Of a DNA stretch of 38,931 nt, positions 12,069-34,532 are shown one piece after another. The DNA is from a bacterium. Lineage in GTDB: Bacteria > UBA9089 > JASEGY01. The DNA lies in assembly GCA_040753085.1 (NCBI GenBank), contig JBFMHI010000011.1, positions 1 through 38,931 of the forward strand, given 5' to 3'. The position numbers were made by a program, and so were the translations under genes. The notes beneath the pieces are model-generated. The model saw only the letters and a list, made by a program, of their open reading frames with translations. It was not told the DNA's origin and ran no database searches. Position 1 is the stretch's first letter. Every line of letters starts with the position of its first letter.

Positions 12069-13082
12069 TTACTTCATAATCAACTCAGCGAAATCCTCAA
12101 ATTCTTCCAATGACTTTACTTCTATCCCCTTCCTGTGAAGAACCTTTAAGATGGAAGCATCTCTTATTTTATTTAATCTCTCCACAATTGATTGGGGAAC
12201 AGCCTCAAAACGCCGATCAAGAATATCAAGGATTCCCTGCTGCAATCCCTGCTGCAATCCCTGCTGCAATCCCTGCTGCAATCCTTGCTGCAATCCCTGC
12301 TGCATTCCTTCTTCTCTTAACACCTCAGCTATGGTAGGCATGATCTCACCTCCTTTATCCAGTAAGGCTTCATCTACCGCCGCCTTGACGTCTTCATAGG
12401 TAACATTAGAGGCAGCATTGAGTATGTATTTCAAAATGGTTTCCAAGTATTCCAGAGCCGTTCGCTTTTCCAAAAGATTTCTTAAAAGACTAAGTATTCC
12501 AGGAAGATGGTCTGTTAAATCCTCTCTAAATATGTATTTTAAAATAAGCAGCGTCATCCGTAAGATGACCTCCCCCTTGATATCCTCATCATTGTACCCG
12601 GACGCATCCCAAAGCAGATACTGAAAATCAGGGATAAACTGAACCAGATCATCAGAATAGGCAAAAAGGTCTCTGAAATTTAAGCCGGCCTGCCAATCTC
12701 CCTCGCCGTGATATAGTACCAAGGGAATGATTACCGGAAACCCCCTTTCATCTTCCTTCTTCTTAAGCCACATTTCCCATATCTTTACCATATACCTGAG
12801 AATATGAAAGGCGGTTAAAATTTCAGCATAGCTCTTGTGCTCAAAAAGGATATACACATACCCCCCTGAACCGTCCTTGAGATCTACCTCGAAAAGCAGA
12901 TCAGAGAAATATTCCTTCAGGTGTTTGTCTATAAATGAATCCTTGGTGTATTCCAGGGAATCCAAATCAAGCAGACTAACCACCTTATTAGGCAGATAAT
13001 TCAGGAGAAATTCCCTGGCTGTATTCTTTCGCGTAAAAACCTCTTTGAAGAATTTGTCGTGAGGATTAATGATCTGTTCCAT
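12069..13082 (-). CDS. Rpn/YhgA-like PD-(D/E)XK nuclease family protein (transposase_31)
   Basis: About 337 aa. The N-terminus MEQIINPHDKFFKEVFTRKN, then YTKDSFIDKHLKEYFSDLLFEVDL (catalytic Asp-x(n)-E), YVYILFEHKS (E-x-K-like) and PVIIPLVLYHGEGDW are hallmarks of recombination-promoting nuclease/putative transposase PF04754. The C-terminal quarter has the repeat QQGL x5-6, encoded by a 12-bp tandem repeat (12232-12303), then a helical tail. An in-frame TTG at 13208 would add 42 residues, but ATG 13082 begins the usual family sequence. Members act in RecA-independent recombination in E. coli; here that is inference. Confidence 0.85.
   Translation of the reverse strand: MEQIINPHDKFFKEVFTRKNTAREFLLNYLPNKVVSLLDLDSLEYTKDSFIDKHLKEYFSDLLFEVDLKDGSGGYVYILFEHKSYAEILTAFHILRYMVKIWEMWLKKKEDERGFPVIIPLVLYHGEGDWQAGLNFRDLFAYSDDLVQFIPDFQYLLWDASGYNDEDIKGEVILRMTLLILKYIFREDLTDHLPGILSLLRNLLEKRTALEYLETILKYILNAASNVTYEDVKAAVDEALLDKGGEIMPTIAEVLREEGMQQGLQQGLQQGLQQGLQQGLQQGILDILDRRFEAVPQSIVERLNKIRDASILKVLHRKGIEVKSLEEFEDFAELIMK
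12232..12303. repeat. 12-bp in-frame tandem repeat within the Rpn-like gene
   Basis: Six units of AATCCCTGCTGC with minor variation, encoding Gln-Gln-Gly-Leu repeats. Copy number likely varies by slippage without breaking the frame. Confidence 0.85.
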
Positions 13083-13216
13083 AAATAACCTGACTTCCTT
13101 ACTGAAAACTGGAGCGTAAGAGAGGAAGAATTTACTGTGGCCTTCCCGTTCTAACCGAAGCAGATATCTTACCCATTGAAATATAGCATAGATGTTACTC
13201 TTTGTCAAATAGAATC

Positions 13217-14915: not shown

Positions 14916-16063
14916 ATGAAGATTACGAAAATATGGCTTCTGGTATGGCTTTTGCCCGGTATGTTTTTCTGGGTTCCCAATGGGTATTGTCGTTTGGCTT
15001 TTGAGAAAGAATTGGCTCAAAAGTTCTGTCCTTCCCTGCAACTTCATTCAGGGGACCGAGGGGTTTGTCCAAAGTCGGTCGAGATTATGAGTAATGGCCG
15101 AGCCGATGGTATATAACCACTTATCTGGACGAGAATGACCTTTGGTGTCGACTCTATGACGTAGTACCAAAGATGCGTGGAGAGTATGATATCAATGACA
15201 AGGGTTGGGATCCACACGGATGGGAAAAATGGCCAATATCAATATACTATGGCGGTCCATATAACGAGCAACCAGTTAAAATAGCAGGAAAGACACCGGC
15301 TGGACGGGATACCGTTTGGTGGGTCTTTTTCCATTACGACTTTGGAGGCCCTGATAGGAACTCTCCTTCTACCTGGTATAAAGATTACCATGACTCCTCA
15401 GGCCTTTACAATGACACTATCTATGCCCATGTATTCCCCTCAGGGGATAAAGCAGTGATCCAATACTGGCTCTTTTACCCATTTAATGACTGGGTGAATA
15501 ACCATGAGGGAGACTGGGAGCACATAAATGTCGGTGTTACATCACAGGATCCAGCCACAGCTAAGATCGAGTATGTTGACTATTACTTCCATCACTCTGT
15601 GAAGAGATGCACCCAGCCTGGTGTGGATTTCTTCGTTGATGATGAGACCCATCCGGTGATTTTTGTTGGAGGATATGGAATGTGGACTGACTGGGGGGCG
15701 ACAGGAAAGGGTCACGGATCTCATGGGTGCTATCCTGTGAAGGGAGGTTGGGAGCGTGTCGAGCGTAGAGAGAAGATTGAAGATTTTCACGAATATATCG
15801 ATGGATCAGGGGAATTTTTAAGCTATCAGACATTTGACCTAAAGGTAATCCCTAACAAAGATGAGATAATCTATGGAGAAGACCCCGATCTATATTGGAT
15901 GAGGTCAAACGTACCATGGGGCCATAGGAATGTTAATTCTCCTGGTGAGGAGGCGGAGCCATATATTAAAGAGGAGGTTGGTAACAGTCCTCCAAGAACG
16001 CCAACCTTCCATCCTGGCTGGAATGATGAAGGCACATCTGGTGAACATAAAGAGTATTCGTAA
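14916..16063 (+). pseudogene. 5' part of a broken secreted-protein gene: signal peptide and Vps62/DUF946-like domain
   Basis: ATG 14916 (SD AAGGAGG, about 14902-14908) opens a signal peptide (MKITKIWLLVWLLPGMFFWVP) and the start of a Vps62/DUF946-like domain (ELAQKFCPSLQLHSGD...PKSVEIM). That frame stops at 15114. The domain continues in the -1 frame from about 15095 (WYITTYLDENDLWCRLYD...), including the family hallmark NHEGDWEHINV and GHGSHGCYP, until TAA 16061-16063. One missing base near 15095-15110 explains the break. The final codons are followed directly by the MITE at 16060, whose first bases supply the stop. The original frame resumes at 16244. Confidence 0.75.
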
Positions 16064-16243
16064 CTACTCAGCCTCTATATAGTAGCCTTACCTAGCGAAA
16101 CCACAACATATTGTGTTTAGGTGTTTAAAAGTTAGCTAAAATTCCTAAAAAACGGCTTTCTATGCAACCTATAAAAGGAGACGAACCACAATATATTGTG
16201 TTCTGTAAGCTTCAAAATCAATATGTGGTGGCTGAGTAGTTAC
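16060..16243. mobile_element. 184-bp MITE-like insertion with perfect TIRs and 8-bp target duplication
   Basis: Perfect 14-bp terminal inverted repeats, GTAACTACTCAGCC (16060-16073) and GGCTGAGTAGTTAC (16230-16243), flanked by the direct repeat GAGTATTC (16052-16059 and 16244-16251). Inside are two near-identical palindromes, CACAACATATTGTG (16102-16115) and CACAATATATTGTG (16187-16200), 85 bp apart. No transposase. Removing the element and one target copy (192 bp) restores the reading frame, with HKEYS joining to KNAPYYP. It must have been mobilised in trans. Confidence 0.85.
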
Positions 16244-18547
16244 GAGTATTCTAAGAATGCACCTTATTATCCAGTGACCAACTCCGGCTATACCATCCCG
16301 AAGGTCGGGCTGATCAAAGGGAGGGTAACTGACAGGGAGGGAATACCTATACCTTGGGCAACAATAAGGGTATTAGGAAAAGAGAATCGCTCAGCCACAA
16401 CAGATGGTAATGGGGATTACAAGATTGCCCTTCCTGTTGGAAGCTATAAAATTCAGGCAGAAAAAAGCGAGTATATTGGAAGTAATGTACTTTCCATAAC
16501 ATTGAATTCAGGAGATACCCTTCAGGCTGACTTTGTTCTGAGAACAAAAGATCTCACTCCACCGACCAGGCCGGTGGTAACCGATGACGGGGATGTGACC
16601 TCGGATAAGACCAAACTGCACGCTAAGTGGTCTGCCTCTGACCCTGAGTCAGGTATTGTCGAATATCAGTATGCCATCGGGACGACCTCTGGAGGGACAA
16701 ATGTGGTAGGCTGGACTTCGGTCGGCCTCGCCACCGAGGTAACTAAGAATGGATTGAATCTCACCTGGGGACAGACCTACTATTTTGCGGTCAAGGCCAA
16801 GAACGGGGTGGGGTTGTGGAGCAAAGTCGGGATAAGTAATGGGATTAGGGTGGACGACTCCACTCCACCGACCAAGCCGGTAGTAACCGATGACGGATAT
16901 ACGACCTCGGATAAGACCAAACTGCACGCTAAGTGGTCTGCCTCTGACCCGGAATCGGGCATTACCGAATATCAATATCAACTTGTCATCGAGATAACTC
17001 CCGTAAGTAGATATTATCTGGTGGGCTGGACTTCGGTCGGCCTCGCCACCGAGGTAACTAAGAGCGGATTGAATCTCACCTGGGGCGAGACCTGCTATTT
17101 TGCGGTCAAGGCTAAGAACGGCGCTGGGTTGTGGAGTAAAGTCGGCGAAAGTAATGGAATAACGGTAAAGGACGCTGCCCCGCCGGTGGTCAACATCACC
17201 TCGCCGGCCAATGGTGCTACGGTGAAAGGGACAGTTACTGTTACGGCTAATGCCTCGGATAACGTGGGAGTGACCCAGGTAGAATTCTATATTGACAATT
17301 CCCTAAAGGCCAATACCTCGAATCCTTATGCCTACGACTGGGATACCACCTCTTCAGCTAATGGGGATCACATCATTAAGGTCATCGCCTACGACCAGGC
17401 CAGAAACAAGGCCGAGAAGACCTGTCAGCTAAAGGTGGACAACGTGGCCAGGGCCGGATGCTCCATTGTAGACAAGAGAGGCGTAGTCACCTTTGAAAAT
17501 GAGAAGGTGAAATACACCTGGAGCAGAGGTAATATAGGTGGTTATTTCAGCCATATTACCTCGGCGGTGGTCAAGTCAACGGGTCGGGAGCAGCTCTATA
17601 CCACATACAAATGGGGGGCGATGCTTTATGCTTTCAGTGGGTATAAAATGAACAAGTATCAGTGGGATTACATTATTACAGAGAATACAGCCGAGAGGGT
17701 TACTCTGTATACCGCGTGCAATTTTGGGCCTTTCACGGCCAGCCGGGAGTATATTCTGGAAAAAGGGAAGCAATACGTGACCATCAAGAATACTATTAAG
17801 GCCAATCAGAAGATAAAAGCAATGTATGCCCAGGTAGCTAACTGGTGGGCGCCGGGAGGGGCCGAGAATCCTATTGCTCCTAAAACGGCCTGGTATCTGG
17901 GCGGCTACGGGGCCTCACCCAATTTCAATAAGTGGTATCTGCTAAATACCAAAGAGAGTCAGGAGGCCTGGACAGCCAATTATGATACCGACAAGAAAGA
18001 AGGCGGCGGGCACATCTGGGAGCCTGACAAAGTAAGACAGATTTATGAAAATGAGGAAGGCCGTTTCCCTTACCTGGAAATCTTAATCCCGGCTCTAACG
18101 GCCGGCAAAAGCCACACCTGGCAGGAACATTTGGTTCTGATAGATAATGGAGATTGGCAGCAGGTGAAACAGATCCGGGATGAACTTTATCCTCCAGTAA
18201 AAGTAGCCGCAGCGGCCAGCAAACCTGAGACAGCCGATGAAGAGAAATCGCCGGAAAAGACCGGTCTGGCTCAGAACTACCCTAACCCGATGAATCCGGA
18301 GACCTGGATTCCCTTCAGCTTAGCTGAGAAGGATTATGTCACCATCCGAATCTATAATCTGAGTGGTCAACTGATCCGCACCCTTGATCTGGGCGAGCGT
18401 GAACCAGGCCGTTATTTCTCAAGGAATGAAGCCGCTTACTGGGACGGCAAAGATGAAGCCGGCCATGAAGTCGCCAGTGGCACTTATCTTTACCAGCTTC
18501 AAGCTAAGGCAGCTACTTCAACCAGGAAGATGATAATTCTGAAATAG
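16196..18547 (+). pseudogene. 3' part of the broken secreted-protein gene: carboxypeptidase-regulatory-like, FnIII-like, Ig-like and FlgD/T9SS-like domains
   Basis: The apparent TTG start at 16196 lies within the MITE; native sequence begins at 16244. Domains in order: a carboxypeptidase-regulatory-like fold (GLIKGRVTDREGIPIPWATIRVLG...), two 102-residue FnIII/Ig-like repeats that are nearly identical at DNA level (16556-16861 and 16862-17170), a bacterial Ig-like domain (PPVVNITSPANGATVKGTVTV...), a beta-rich region of ~230 aa, and a C-terminal FlgD/T9SS-type beta domain (LAQNYPNPMNPETWIPF, then GTYLYQLQA..RKMIILK). Joined to the 5' part with one base restored, the gene is exactly 1147 codons. 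Likely a secreted, possibly surface-attached, adhesive or enzyme-like protein. This part could still be translated if internal initiation occurs. Confidence 0.75.
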
Positions 18548-22040: not shown

Positions 22041-22084
22041 AGCCTTCAGTCTTCAGCCTTCAGCCTGTTTGCCTGAGTAGTTAC
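22041..22084 (-). repeat. GTAACTACTCAGGCA... dispersed repeat at the 3' end of the mlaC-like gene
   Basis: Read on the minus strand: GTAACTACTCAGGCA followed by AGGCTGAAGGCTGAAGAC and TGAAGGCT; matches 24291-24334 with only a few differences. It encodes the last residues (VTTQANRLKAED) and the stop of the gene, so it was inserted in or at the end of the coding sequence. Confidence 0.75.
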
Positions 22085-24290: not shown

Positions 24291-24334
24291 GTAACTACTC
24301 AGGCAGAGAGGCTGAAGGCTGAAGACTGAAGGCT
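24291..24334 (+). repeat. GTAACTACTCAGGCA... dispersed repeat
   Basis: Begins GTAACTACTCAGGCAGAG, continues with alternating GGCTGAAG/GACTGAAG units. Second copy at 22041-22084 on the other strand. Occupies the gap between secA and the phosphatidyltransferase gene. Confidence 0.75.
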
Positions 24335-27129: not shown

Positions 27130-27488
27130 AAATCGTAACCGTTCAGCCACCAAGGCACGAAGACACAAAGGGGAAAAAGTATGTGTCTTAGAGAGCAGTA
27201 GAGCAATAGAGCAGCAGTTCTGGAACTTTCAGAAAAGTCTTTAACTACTGCGCTACTGCTCTGTTTTGAGCTATTAAGAAATAATCCTGTAACCGTTCAG
27301 CACATGATGCTGGATGCTCGATGCTCGATCCTCGATGCTCGATCTTCGATGCTGGTAAAGGATTCAGTATCCAGGATCGAGCATCCAGGATCGAGGATCG
27401 AGGTTGTGTCTTTGTGCCTTTGTGGCTGAGGACTTACAAAAAATCAGTGTTTCATCTGTGTCCATCCGTGGCTGAATAGTTACGATTT
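27130..27488. mobile_element. 359-bp composite palindromic element
   Basis: Outer inverted ends AAATCGTAACCGTTCAGCC (27130-27148) and GGCTGAATAGTTACGATTT (27470-27488). Nested inside are CCAAGGCACGAAGACACAAAG versus its inverted match CTTTGTGCCTTTGTGG, an AGAGCAGTAG/CTACTGCTCT pair, a second GTAACCGTTCAG start at about 27291, and a long GATGCTCGATCCTCGATGC / GATCGAGCATCCAGGATCG hairpin. No coding capacity. Looks like elements inserted within elements. Confidence 0.65.
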
Positions 27489-32711: not shown

Positions 32712-34532
32712 GGGGCTGGATGGCTGAGTAGTAGCTACCTTCAAGTTTGAGGTGGAGTTTTCAGTAAAGTATGTTTCCATTATCTTTCTGGCGATCGGGG
32801 CAGCGGCGGCACCGCCGTGACCACCGTGTTCGACCAGCACAGAGACAGCTAATTCAGGTTTATCTACCGGCGCAAAGCACATGAACCAGGCATGATCTTC
32901 TCCATGCGGGTTCTGGGCCGTGCCCGTCTTGCCACCGATCCTTAAGTCCTTGATTTTGGCCTGCCAGCCTGTACCTCGCGAGACCACCCCCTCCAGGGCA
33001 TTGTGAAGCAAAGATAAGGTAGTTCGCTTTAGAGAAAATTTCCGCAACAACTGAGGTTCAAAAGAATTTATTACCTTTCCGTCAGGACTATGGATGGCCT
33101 TCACTACCAACGGCTTATATATCCTCCCCCCGTTGACTACCGCCGCCATGAGGTTAGCCAATTGAATAGGGGTAGTCAAGAGATAGCCCTGGCCAATACT
33201 AAAATTAACCGTTTCTCCCAGGTGCCATCGTTCACCTAAAGTCTTTTTTTTCCAGGCTGGATCAGGGACAAGACCCGGCTTCTCATGAGGAAAGGAAATT
33301 TGAGAAAACTGACCAAGCCCAAAATTTCTGGCCATTTCAGCCATTCTTTCCGCGCCTACCTTGAGTCCTAACTGATAGAAGTAGACATTACAGGAATGGA
33401 TAATAGCTTCTTCCAGGTTCTTCCAGCCATGTCCCTGTTCCTTCCAGCAGGCATATCTCCTGCCTAAATAGTAGCTTCCTCCGCAGTAAAAGGTTTCTGA
33501 AGGCTTAACCAGATTATTTTCCAGGGCAGCCGAAGCCACCACTATCTTGAACTGAGATCCGGGAGAATATTGAGCAGAAATGGCCCGGTTTAGCAAGGGA
33601 TAACGGGGATCAGAAAAGAAATCTTTAATCTTGATCTTCTTCTGGGGGCTGACAAACACATTTGGGTCAAAAGCCGGTTTACTGGCCATAGCCAGAATTC
33701 CCCCAGTATTAACATCCAGAACAACCACTGCCCCGCGGCTGTCGCCTAAGGCCTCCTCAGCCGTACGCTGCAGGGCATAATCGATAGTCAAGGTTAAATT
33801 GTCTCCCAGAGTGGGGTCTTTTCTGGAGATGGTCCCAAGTCTACGCCCCTTTACGTCTACCTCTACTTGTTCTACTCCATTTTCCCCCCTCAGGTAATCG
33901 TCAAACTCTCTTTCTACCCCCGCCTTTCCAATCAAATCCCCGGAACGATACCCTTTCTGCCTTAGTTCCTCCAATTCCGCCCCGCTTACCTCCCCCAGAT
34001 AACCGATGATGTGCGCGGCCAGATCACCGTAGACATAGTCCCTTCGGGGGCTTACCTGAATAATTACCCCCGGCAGGTCTATCTTTCTTTCAGCCACCTG
34101 GGTCATAGTCTTTCGGTCAACGTCCTGGATAATTAAGGCCGGATTAAAAGGGCAATGGGCTTCTTTAGACAGGCGCTCTCTTATCTCGGTGGGAGAAAGA
34201 TTCAATATCCGACTTAAGCCAGTGATGGTGCGTTCTAATATCTGGGGAGAAAGCCCAAGCTGGATAACAGAAATATCAAAGGAAGGGCGATTTCTAACCA
34301 GCACCGTGCCTTTTCGGTCAAGGATCCTACCCCGGGGAGCCGTGACAGGAATGAATTGAATCCGGTTCTCCTCTGATTCTTTTTTGAACCCTCCTCCTTG
34401 AAGGATTTGGACCTGATAAAGACGAAGCACAACCACGGAAAAGAAGAAGGCAAATATGGTGCCTACTATTATTATTTTCCTCCGGGCAAGCTTTATATCT
34501 TCCCTGGTAGTATTTGAATAAATCATGGGCAC
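32709..34532 (-). CDS. mrdA: Penicillin-binding protein 2
   Basis: 607 aa class B transpeptidase of the elongasome, anchored by one N-terminal TM helix (IIIVGTIFAFFFSVVVLRLYQ). PBP dimerisation domain starts at APRGRILDRKG; the transpeptidase domain has SxxK S326-Q-F-K329, SCN at 380-382 and KTG at 535-537. All catalytic residues present and length typical. Start ATG 34532, with ATG 34526 two codons in. The C-terminal VATTQPSSP and stop are supplied by dispersed repeat sequence. RodA is not adjacent. Confidence 0.95.
   Translation of the reverse strand: MPMIYSNTTREDIKLARRKIIIVGTIFAFFFSVVVLRLYQVQILQGGGFKKESEENRIQFIPVTAPRGRILDRKGTVLVRNRPSFDISVIQLGLSPQILERTITGLSRILNLSPTEIRERLSKEAHCPFNPALIIQDVDRKTMTQVAERKIDLPGVIIQVSPRRDYVYGDLAAHIIGYLGEVSGAELEELRQKGYRSGDLIGKAGVEREFDDYLRGENGVEQVEVDVKGRRLGTISRKDPTLGDNLTLTIDYALQRTAEEALGDSRGAVVVLDVNTGGILAMASKPAFDPNVFVSPQKKIKIKDFFSDPRYPLLNRAISAQYSPGSQFKIVVASAALENNLVKPSETFYCGGSYYLGRRYACWKEQGHGWKNLEEAIIHSCNVYFYQLGLKVGAERMAEMARNFGLGQFSQISFPHEKPGLVPDPAWKKKTLGERWHLGETVNFSIGQGYLLTTPIQLANLMAAVVNGGRIYKPLVVKAIHSPDGKVINSFEPQLLRKFSLKRTTLSLLHNALEGVVSRGTGWQAKIKDLRIGGKTGTAQNPHGEDHAWFMCFAPVDKPELAVSVLVEHGGHGGAAAAPIARKIMETYFTENSTSNLKVATTQPSSP

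What the first reader, a model, noticed from the sequence alone, without database searches (positions are those of the whole stretch)
16052..16251. MITE-like element with exact 8-bp target duplication splits a secreted-protein gene
The 184-bp element has perfect 14-bp TIRs (GTAACTACTCAGCC) and is flanked by GAGTATTC on both sides. Cutting out 192 bp rejoins HKEYS and KNAPYYP in one frame, which shows a recent precise insertion. The TIR matches ends seen at 22084, 24291 and 32720-32730, defining a family that is active or recently active.
Basis: seen in the sequence. Interest (0 to 1): 0.75.

Follow-up and report, generated by a model that had tools for sequence, protein, structure and literature searches.

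The report
Recently active IS66-type miniature transposon
A 184-base parasitic DNA element with no genes of its own has recently copied itself to about 22 places in this bacterium's genome, one of them inside a gene for a secreted protein, and its end sequences suggest that it borrows the enzyme of a known jumping-gene family called IS66.

Summary
A 184-bp element (16060-16243) has perfect 14-bp inverted ends and exact 8-bp duplications (GAGTATTC). The same genome holds 13 complete copies, all 100% identical and all with perfect 8-bp duplications. A further 13 copies are cut at contig ends; four pairs of these rejoin through matching duplications, giving about 22 sites. A sister species has its own set, up to 91% identical. 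Homologues of the host gene in two other genera read straight through the insertion point.

The ends (GTAACTACTCAGCC) and 8-bp duplications match IS66-family transposons of the single-gene ISBst12 group: IS66 elements in the same phylum, other bacteria and archaea, and ISDge4, whose transposition has been observed. No intact transposase is assembled in this genome. A longer multicopy element with the same ends lies in assembly gaps; its sister-species relative starts an IS66-like transposase.

Corrections: the host gene carries a second, independent frameshift, so this insertion may not be what broke it.

Verdict: a real, recently active new MITE family of a known kind; IS66 parentage strongly supported, not proven.

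The parts
16060..16243 (.). 184-bp MITE, non-coding, IS66/ISBst12-type ends
16060..16073 (+). left terminal inverted repeat GTAACTACTCAGCC
16230..16243 (-). right terminal inverted repeat GTAACTACTCAGCC
16052..16059 (.). target-site duplication GAGTATTC, left copy
16244..16251 (.). target-site duplication GAGTATTC, right copy
16099..16117 (.). internal palindromic repeat AACCACAACATATTGTGTT (copy 1), role unknown, retained in similar form in the sister species
16184..16202 (.). internal palindromic repeat AACCACAATATATTGTGTT (copy 2), role unknown
14916..18547 (+). interrupted secreted-protein gene (Big_7, CarboxypepD_reg, FlgD_ig and Por_Secre_tail domains in its C-terminal part); also frameshifted near 15107-15115

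Best explanation
This is a MITE: a short non-autonomous transposon moved in trans by a transposase of the IS66 family, ISBst12 group (a single DDE transposase gene, tnpC, without tnpA or tnpB). The transposase would recognise the GTAACTACTCAGCC ends, cut the element out or copy it, and join it to staggered cuts 8 bp apart in A+T-rich target DNA; gap filling makes the 8-bp duplication. Shown here: the anatomy, 13 of 13 identical complete copies with perfect duplications, the separate set in a sister species, the uninterrupted homologous genes, and the match of ends and duplication length to IS66-type elements. Inferred: that an IS66 transposase acts on this element, that the enzyme in this genome is encoded by the multicopy element lying in assembly gaps, and the chemistry of transposition.
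For: Thirteen complete copies are identical over 184 bp with 13/13 perfect 8-bp TSDs. Four pairs of contig-end halves rejoin by identical 8-mers. The sister species has a family 85-91% identical, with 6/6 first-inspected copies carrying perfect TSDs. TSDs are A+T-rich: 74% against 55% in held DNA, and 0 of 10,000 random draws reached it. IS66 transposase elements in the same phylum carry related ends: L114/L145 GTAACTACTCAGG, L116 GTAACCGTTCAGG, L117 GTAACTATTCAGCA, L115 GTAACCGTTCACA. P0001 of L114 passes the NCBIfam IS66 equivalog cut-off. Other IS66 elements have GTAACTACTCAGG, GTAACTACTCACC, GTAACTACTCAGCC or GTAACTGCCCAGG ends; L152, L165, L170 and L179 have perfect 8-bp TSDs. ISDge4 (ISBst12 group, transposition observed) has TIRs GTGACTACTCAGCA/GTAACTGCTCAGCA and an 8-bp repeat (PMC12898284); IS66 ends start GTAA with 8-bp repeats (PMC11946415). 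A multicopy element in this genome has the same TIR: left ends C156, C159 and right ends C93, C109 pair by TSDs CCAGAGGT and GAGGTTAT. The homologous left end in the sister species (G001:C864, L104) leads into an ATG whose product matches the N-termini of IS66 transposases with GTAACTACTCACC ends.
Against: No IS66 transposase (PF03050) is present in the assembled part of this genome or of the sister species. Similarity between this MITE and IS66 elements is limited to the ends; the interior resembles no element found. The N-terminal IS66 match in the sister species is short (36-41 aligned residues, E about 1e-4 against a small, chosen set). The complete IS66 element with nearly identical ends in the same phylum (L114/L145) has no clear 8-bp duplication.
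Confidence: 0.88

Rival explanations
1. The element is a MITE, but its transposase belongs to another DDE family that also makes 8-bp duplications (for example IS256, ISL3 or IS1595 types).
For: No IS66 transposase is assembled in this genome, and 8-bp duplications are not unique to IS66 (general knowledge of IS families).
Against: The 14-bp end matches IS66/ISBst12-type ends in the same phylum, in other bacteria and archaea, and ISDge4. Only IS66 was searched for as a family, so other families were not excluded one by one.
Confidence: 0.08
2. The repeat is a fixed regulatory or RNA-processing element (a folding intergenic repeat kept for function) rather than a transposon in recent motion.
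For: The strand folds much better than shuffled sequence (z -5.5), and internal palindromes are kept in similar form in the sister species.
Against: Perfect target duplications at every complete copy, identity of all copies, insertion inside coding frames, no Rfam match and no promoter or terminator pattern. Inverted ends fold in any MITE.
Confidence: 0.03
3. Assembly artefact: a repeat wrongly placed inside the gene.
For: Many copies fall at contig ends.
Against: Each site has its own duplicated 8-mer, which a misassembly would not create; homologues give the expected empty site.
Confidence: 0.01

Closest known systems
ISDge4 (IS66 family, ISBst12 group, Deinococcus geothermalis; PMC12898284)
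   Same: Terminal repeats GTGACTACTCAGCA / GTAACTGCTCAGCA against GTAACTACTCAGCC here; 8-bp direct repeat; observed to transpose
   Different: ISDge4 is autonomous with a 449-aa transposase; this element is 184 bp with no gene
IS66 element L114/L145 (JAHIZN010000281.1, same phylum, 1737 bp)
   Same: First 12 bases of both ends identical (GTAACTACTCAG); single DDE_Tnp_IS66 gene (P0001)
   Different: 13th base and interior differ; no clear target duplication at that copy
Bacterial MITEs such as MITEPsy1 (probably from ISPsy2; PMC3189936) and MITECca01 (IS982 family; PMC9769881)
   Same: Short, non-coding, TIRs shared with an insertion sequence, several copies
   Different: Parent family differs; no IS66-derived MITE came up in the paper searches made here, though the library is incomplete

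Membership tests
MITE (bacterial miniature inverted-repeat transposable element) | short (typically under 300 bp), no coding capacity | tested here: met
   184 bp, stops in all six frames
MITE (bacterial miniature inverted-repeat transposable element) | terminal inverted repeats and target-site duplications | tested here: met
   14-bp perfect TIRs; 13/13 complete copies with perfect 8-bp TSDs
MITE (bacterial miniature inverted-repeat transposable element) | multiple dispersed near-identical copies | tested here: met
   13 complete plus 13 contig-end copies, about 22 sites
MITE (bacterial miniature inverted-repeat transposable element) | ends shared with an autonomous element in the same genome | tested here: inconclusive
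   A longer multicopy element with the same TIR and 8-bp TSDs exists, but its interior lies in assembly gaps
IS66 family, ISBst12 group (as source of the transposase) | terminal repeats beginning GTAA | tested here: met
   GTAACTACTCAGCC; PMC11946415; IS66 elements
IS66 family, ISBst12 group (as source of the transposase) | 8-bp target-site duplication | tested here: met
   IS66 elements L152, L165, L170 and L179 also 8 bp
IS66 family, ISBst12 group (as source of the transposase) | longer (20-30 bp) terminal repeats described for canonical IS66 | tested here: not met
   Only 14 bp perfect here; many of the IS66 elements compared and ISDge4 also show about 12-14 bp
IS66 family, ISBst12 group (as source of the transposase) | encodes TnpC (DDE_Tnp_IS66) | tested here: not met
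   The element has no gene, so it is not itself an IS66 insertion sequence; it is filed only as an IS66-type MITE
IS66 family, ISBst12 group (as source of the transposase) | mobilised by an IS66 transposase | not testable with these tools
   needs a transposition assay

The most novel reading that the evidence does not exclude
In this genus ISBst12-type transposases appear to need little more than the 14-bp end, so that many unrelated short sequences (elements of 45 to 515 bp, many with exact 8-bp duplications) have become mobile. The genome would be seeded with about 300 such ends, a large group of IS66-driven miniature elements that share only their tips.
Probability: 0.4. Interest if true: 0.45.

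Novelty: new member of a known kind. Interest (0 to 1): 0.36.

Why it matters
It gives a clear case of a recent miniature-element burst in an uncultured bacterial lineage and ties it to the ISBst12 group of IS66, a group whose transposition was reported as first observed only in 2026 (PMC12898284). Copies break the assembly, and their 8-bp duplications can be used to rejoin contigs. The same ends bound many short, unrelated interiors in this genus, so the system could show how little sequence an IS66-type transposase needs at its ends.

Tried and rejected
Direct search for an IS66 transposase (PF03050) in the own and sister genomes found none; PF03050 members elsewhere in the phylum were used instead. 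Following the short coiled-coil ORF beside a TIR in G001:C392 (L106) gave no confident family, one weak match in the phylum beyond itself and none in plasmids. The element is absent from the phage records searched, and no TIR pair of similar spacing was found in viral contigs. No Rfam family, and no promoter or terminator pattern. The sister species gave no match to the host gene, so an orthologous empty site could not be shown there. The flanks of six sister-species copies matched no flank of the copies held from this genome, so no shared insertion was seen.

Full report
Check of the observation. The element lies at 16060-16243 (184 bp), with perfect 14-bp terminal inverted repeats GTAACTACTCAGCC and the direct repeat GAGTATTC on both sides, at 16052-16059 and 16244-16251. 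With up to two mismatches the end sequence occurs ten times in the window against 0.13 expected. All six reading frames of the element contain stops, so an insertion in any orientation truncates a gene. Element plus duplication is 192 bp, a multiple of three, which is why the flanks share a frame.

The family in this genome. The window is contig 11 of a 3.05-Mb, 250-contig, 97% complete assembly. It holds 13 complete copies and 13 copies cut at contig ends. All 13 complete copies are identical over 184 bp and every one is flanked by a perfect 8-bp duplication, each of a different sequence. Among the cut copies, four left halves and four right halves on different contigs pair by identical 8-mers, which leaves five unpaired ends and about 22 sites in all. 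Duplicated targets are A+T-rich (74% against 55% in held DNA; 0 of 10,000 random draws as high). Several copies lie between genes or near gene ends, while some interrupt open frames: the one here, and a 250-codon frame on contig 10 that reads by eye as two response-regulator receiver domains. The exact 14-mer occurs 95 times in the genome and 309 times at one mismatch or less, against 0 and 1 for the reversed control pattern.

Relatives. The other genome of the genus (G001) carries the same element at 85-91% identity. The six copies first inspected have perfect 8-bp duplications, and four of the six are identical to each other; of three more on one contig, one has a perfect duplication, one differs by one base and one has none. 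Two separate sets, each more uniform within than between, imply amplification within each lineage. The element was not found in the 59 other genomes searched, and the exact 14-mer is rare outside the genus.

The interrupted gene. The N-terminal half (15173-16057) finds homologues in G012 (65% identity) and G007 (60%) that lie in single open frames of 1180 and 1197 codons; G001 has no match. The two sides of the insertion align to consecutive parts of the G012 protein, up to residue 380 and from 382. The start of the gene is at 14916, and a frameshift near 15107-15115 separates its first 66 codons from the rest; the homologues read through there too. The gene therefore has two lesions, and their order cannot be told. 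Unless the frameshift is a sequencing error, the insertion may have landed in an already dead gene.

Which transposase. No IS66 gene is assembled in either genome of the genus. In the same phylum, elements that do carry PF03050 transposases have the ends GTAACTACTCAGG (L114), GTAACCGTTCAGG (L116), GTAACTATTCAGCA (L117) and GTAACCGTTCACA (L115). The L114 protein P0001 passes the NCBIfam IS66 equivalog cut-off. A scan of GTDB genomes with P0001 gave further IS66 elements in bacteria and in methanogenic or ANME archaea with ends such as GTAACTACTCAGG, GTAACTACTCACC, GTAACTGCCCAGGT and, at one end each in L153 and L162, GTAACTACTCAGCC. Four of them (L152, L165, L170, L179) have perfect 8-bp duplications. 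In the literature, ISDge4 of the ISBst12 group was caught transposing with ends GTGACTACTCAGCA / GTAACTGCTCAGCA and an 8-bp repeat (PMC12898284), and IS66 ends are described as starting GTAA with 8-bp repeats (PMC11946415).

The likely autonomous partner. In this genome two other kinds of end (CCATAAAAAAAAACTC... on C156, C159 and C207; CCATATGAGTTC... on C93, C109 and C175) run into contig ends and are multicopy. Their duplications pair: C156 with C93 (CCAGAGGT) and C159 with C109 (GAGGTTAT). They are therefore most likely the two ends of one longer element that inserts with 8-bp duplications and is lost in assembly gaps. The left end in the sister species (G001:C864), 93% identical over 61 bp, runs into a coding sequence whose N-terminus aligns with the N-termini of IS66 transposases bearing GTAACTACTCACC ends. 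That match is short and should be read as suggestive.

More miniature elements. Other short elements in the two genomes share only the tips and have different interiors. Examples with exact 8-bp duplications are 91, 133, 134, 146, 172, 185, 193, 215, 305 and 515 bp long; a 45-bp one sits in A-rich DNA. In the window, 27135-27437 is one of this kind, with one mismatch in its duplication. The sites at 22084 and 24291 are solo ends without a partner, and 32722 is probably chance.

Verdict. The finding is real and its interpretation stands, with the IS66 (ISBst12-group) parentage added and the host-gene claim tempered. It is a new family of a known kind. The paper searches turned up no IS66-derived MITE, but the library is incomplete and ISfinder could not be consulted, so no claim of priority is made.

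Noticed in passing
window 15107-15115: Frameshift in the same host gene, independent of the element; homologues in two genera read through.
   Followed up: partly
window 27135-27437: 303-bp older miniature element with related ends and an 8-bp duplication with one mismatch.
   Followed up: partly
window 22071-22084 and 24291-24304: Two solo GTAACTACTCAGGC ends whose interiors point away from each other share the subterminal sequence GGCTGAAGGCTGAAGACTGAA and flank a 2.2-kb segment with an MlaC-like gene; no partner ends or duplications found.
   Followed up: partly
L225:1026-2039 (G001:C165:15925-16938): 1014-bp segment with long inverted repeats ending in GTAACTACTCAGCC carries two small ORFs resembling a toxin-antitoxin pair by eye; no 8-bp duplication, and no confident family match.
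   Followed up: partly
L070:1535-1579 (G000:C81): A 45-bp element, little more than two ends, flanked by AAAGAAAA on both sides; the surrounding DNA is A-rich, so the duplication is weaker evidence here.
   Followed up: no
window 12069-13208 (-): Gene with a strong Pfam match to Transposase_31 (YhgA-like, PF04754); no relation to this element was looked for.
   Followed up: no
G001:C428 986-1170 and 1192-1376: Two copies of the sister-species MITE in the same orientation 21 bp apart.
   Followed up: no
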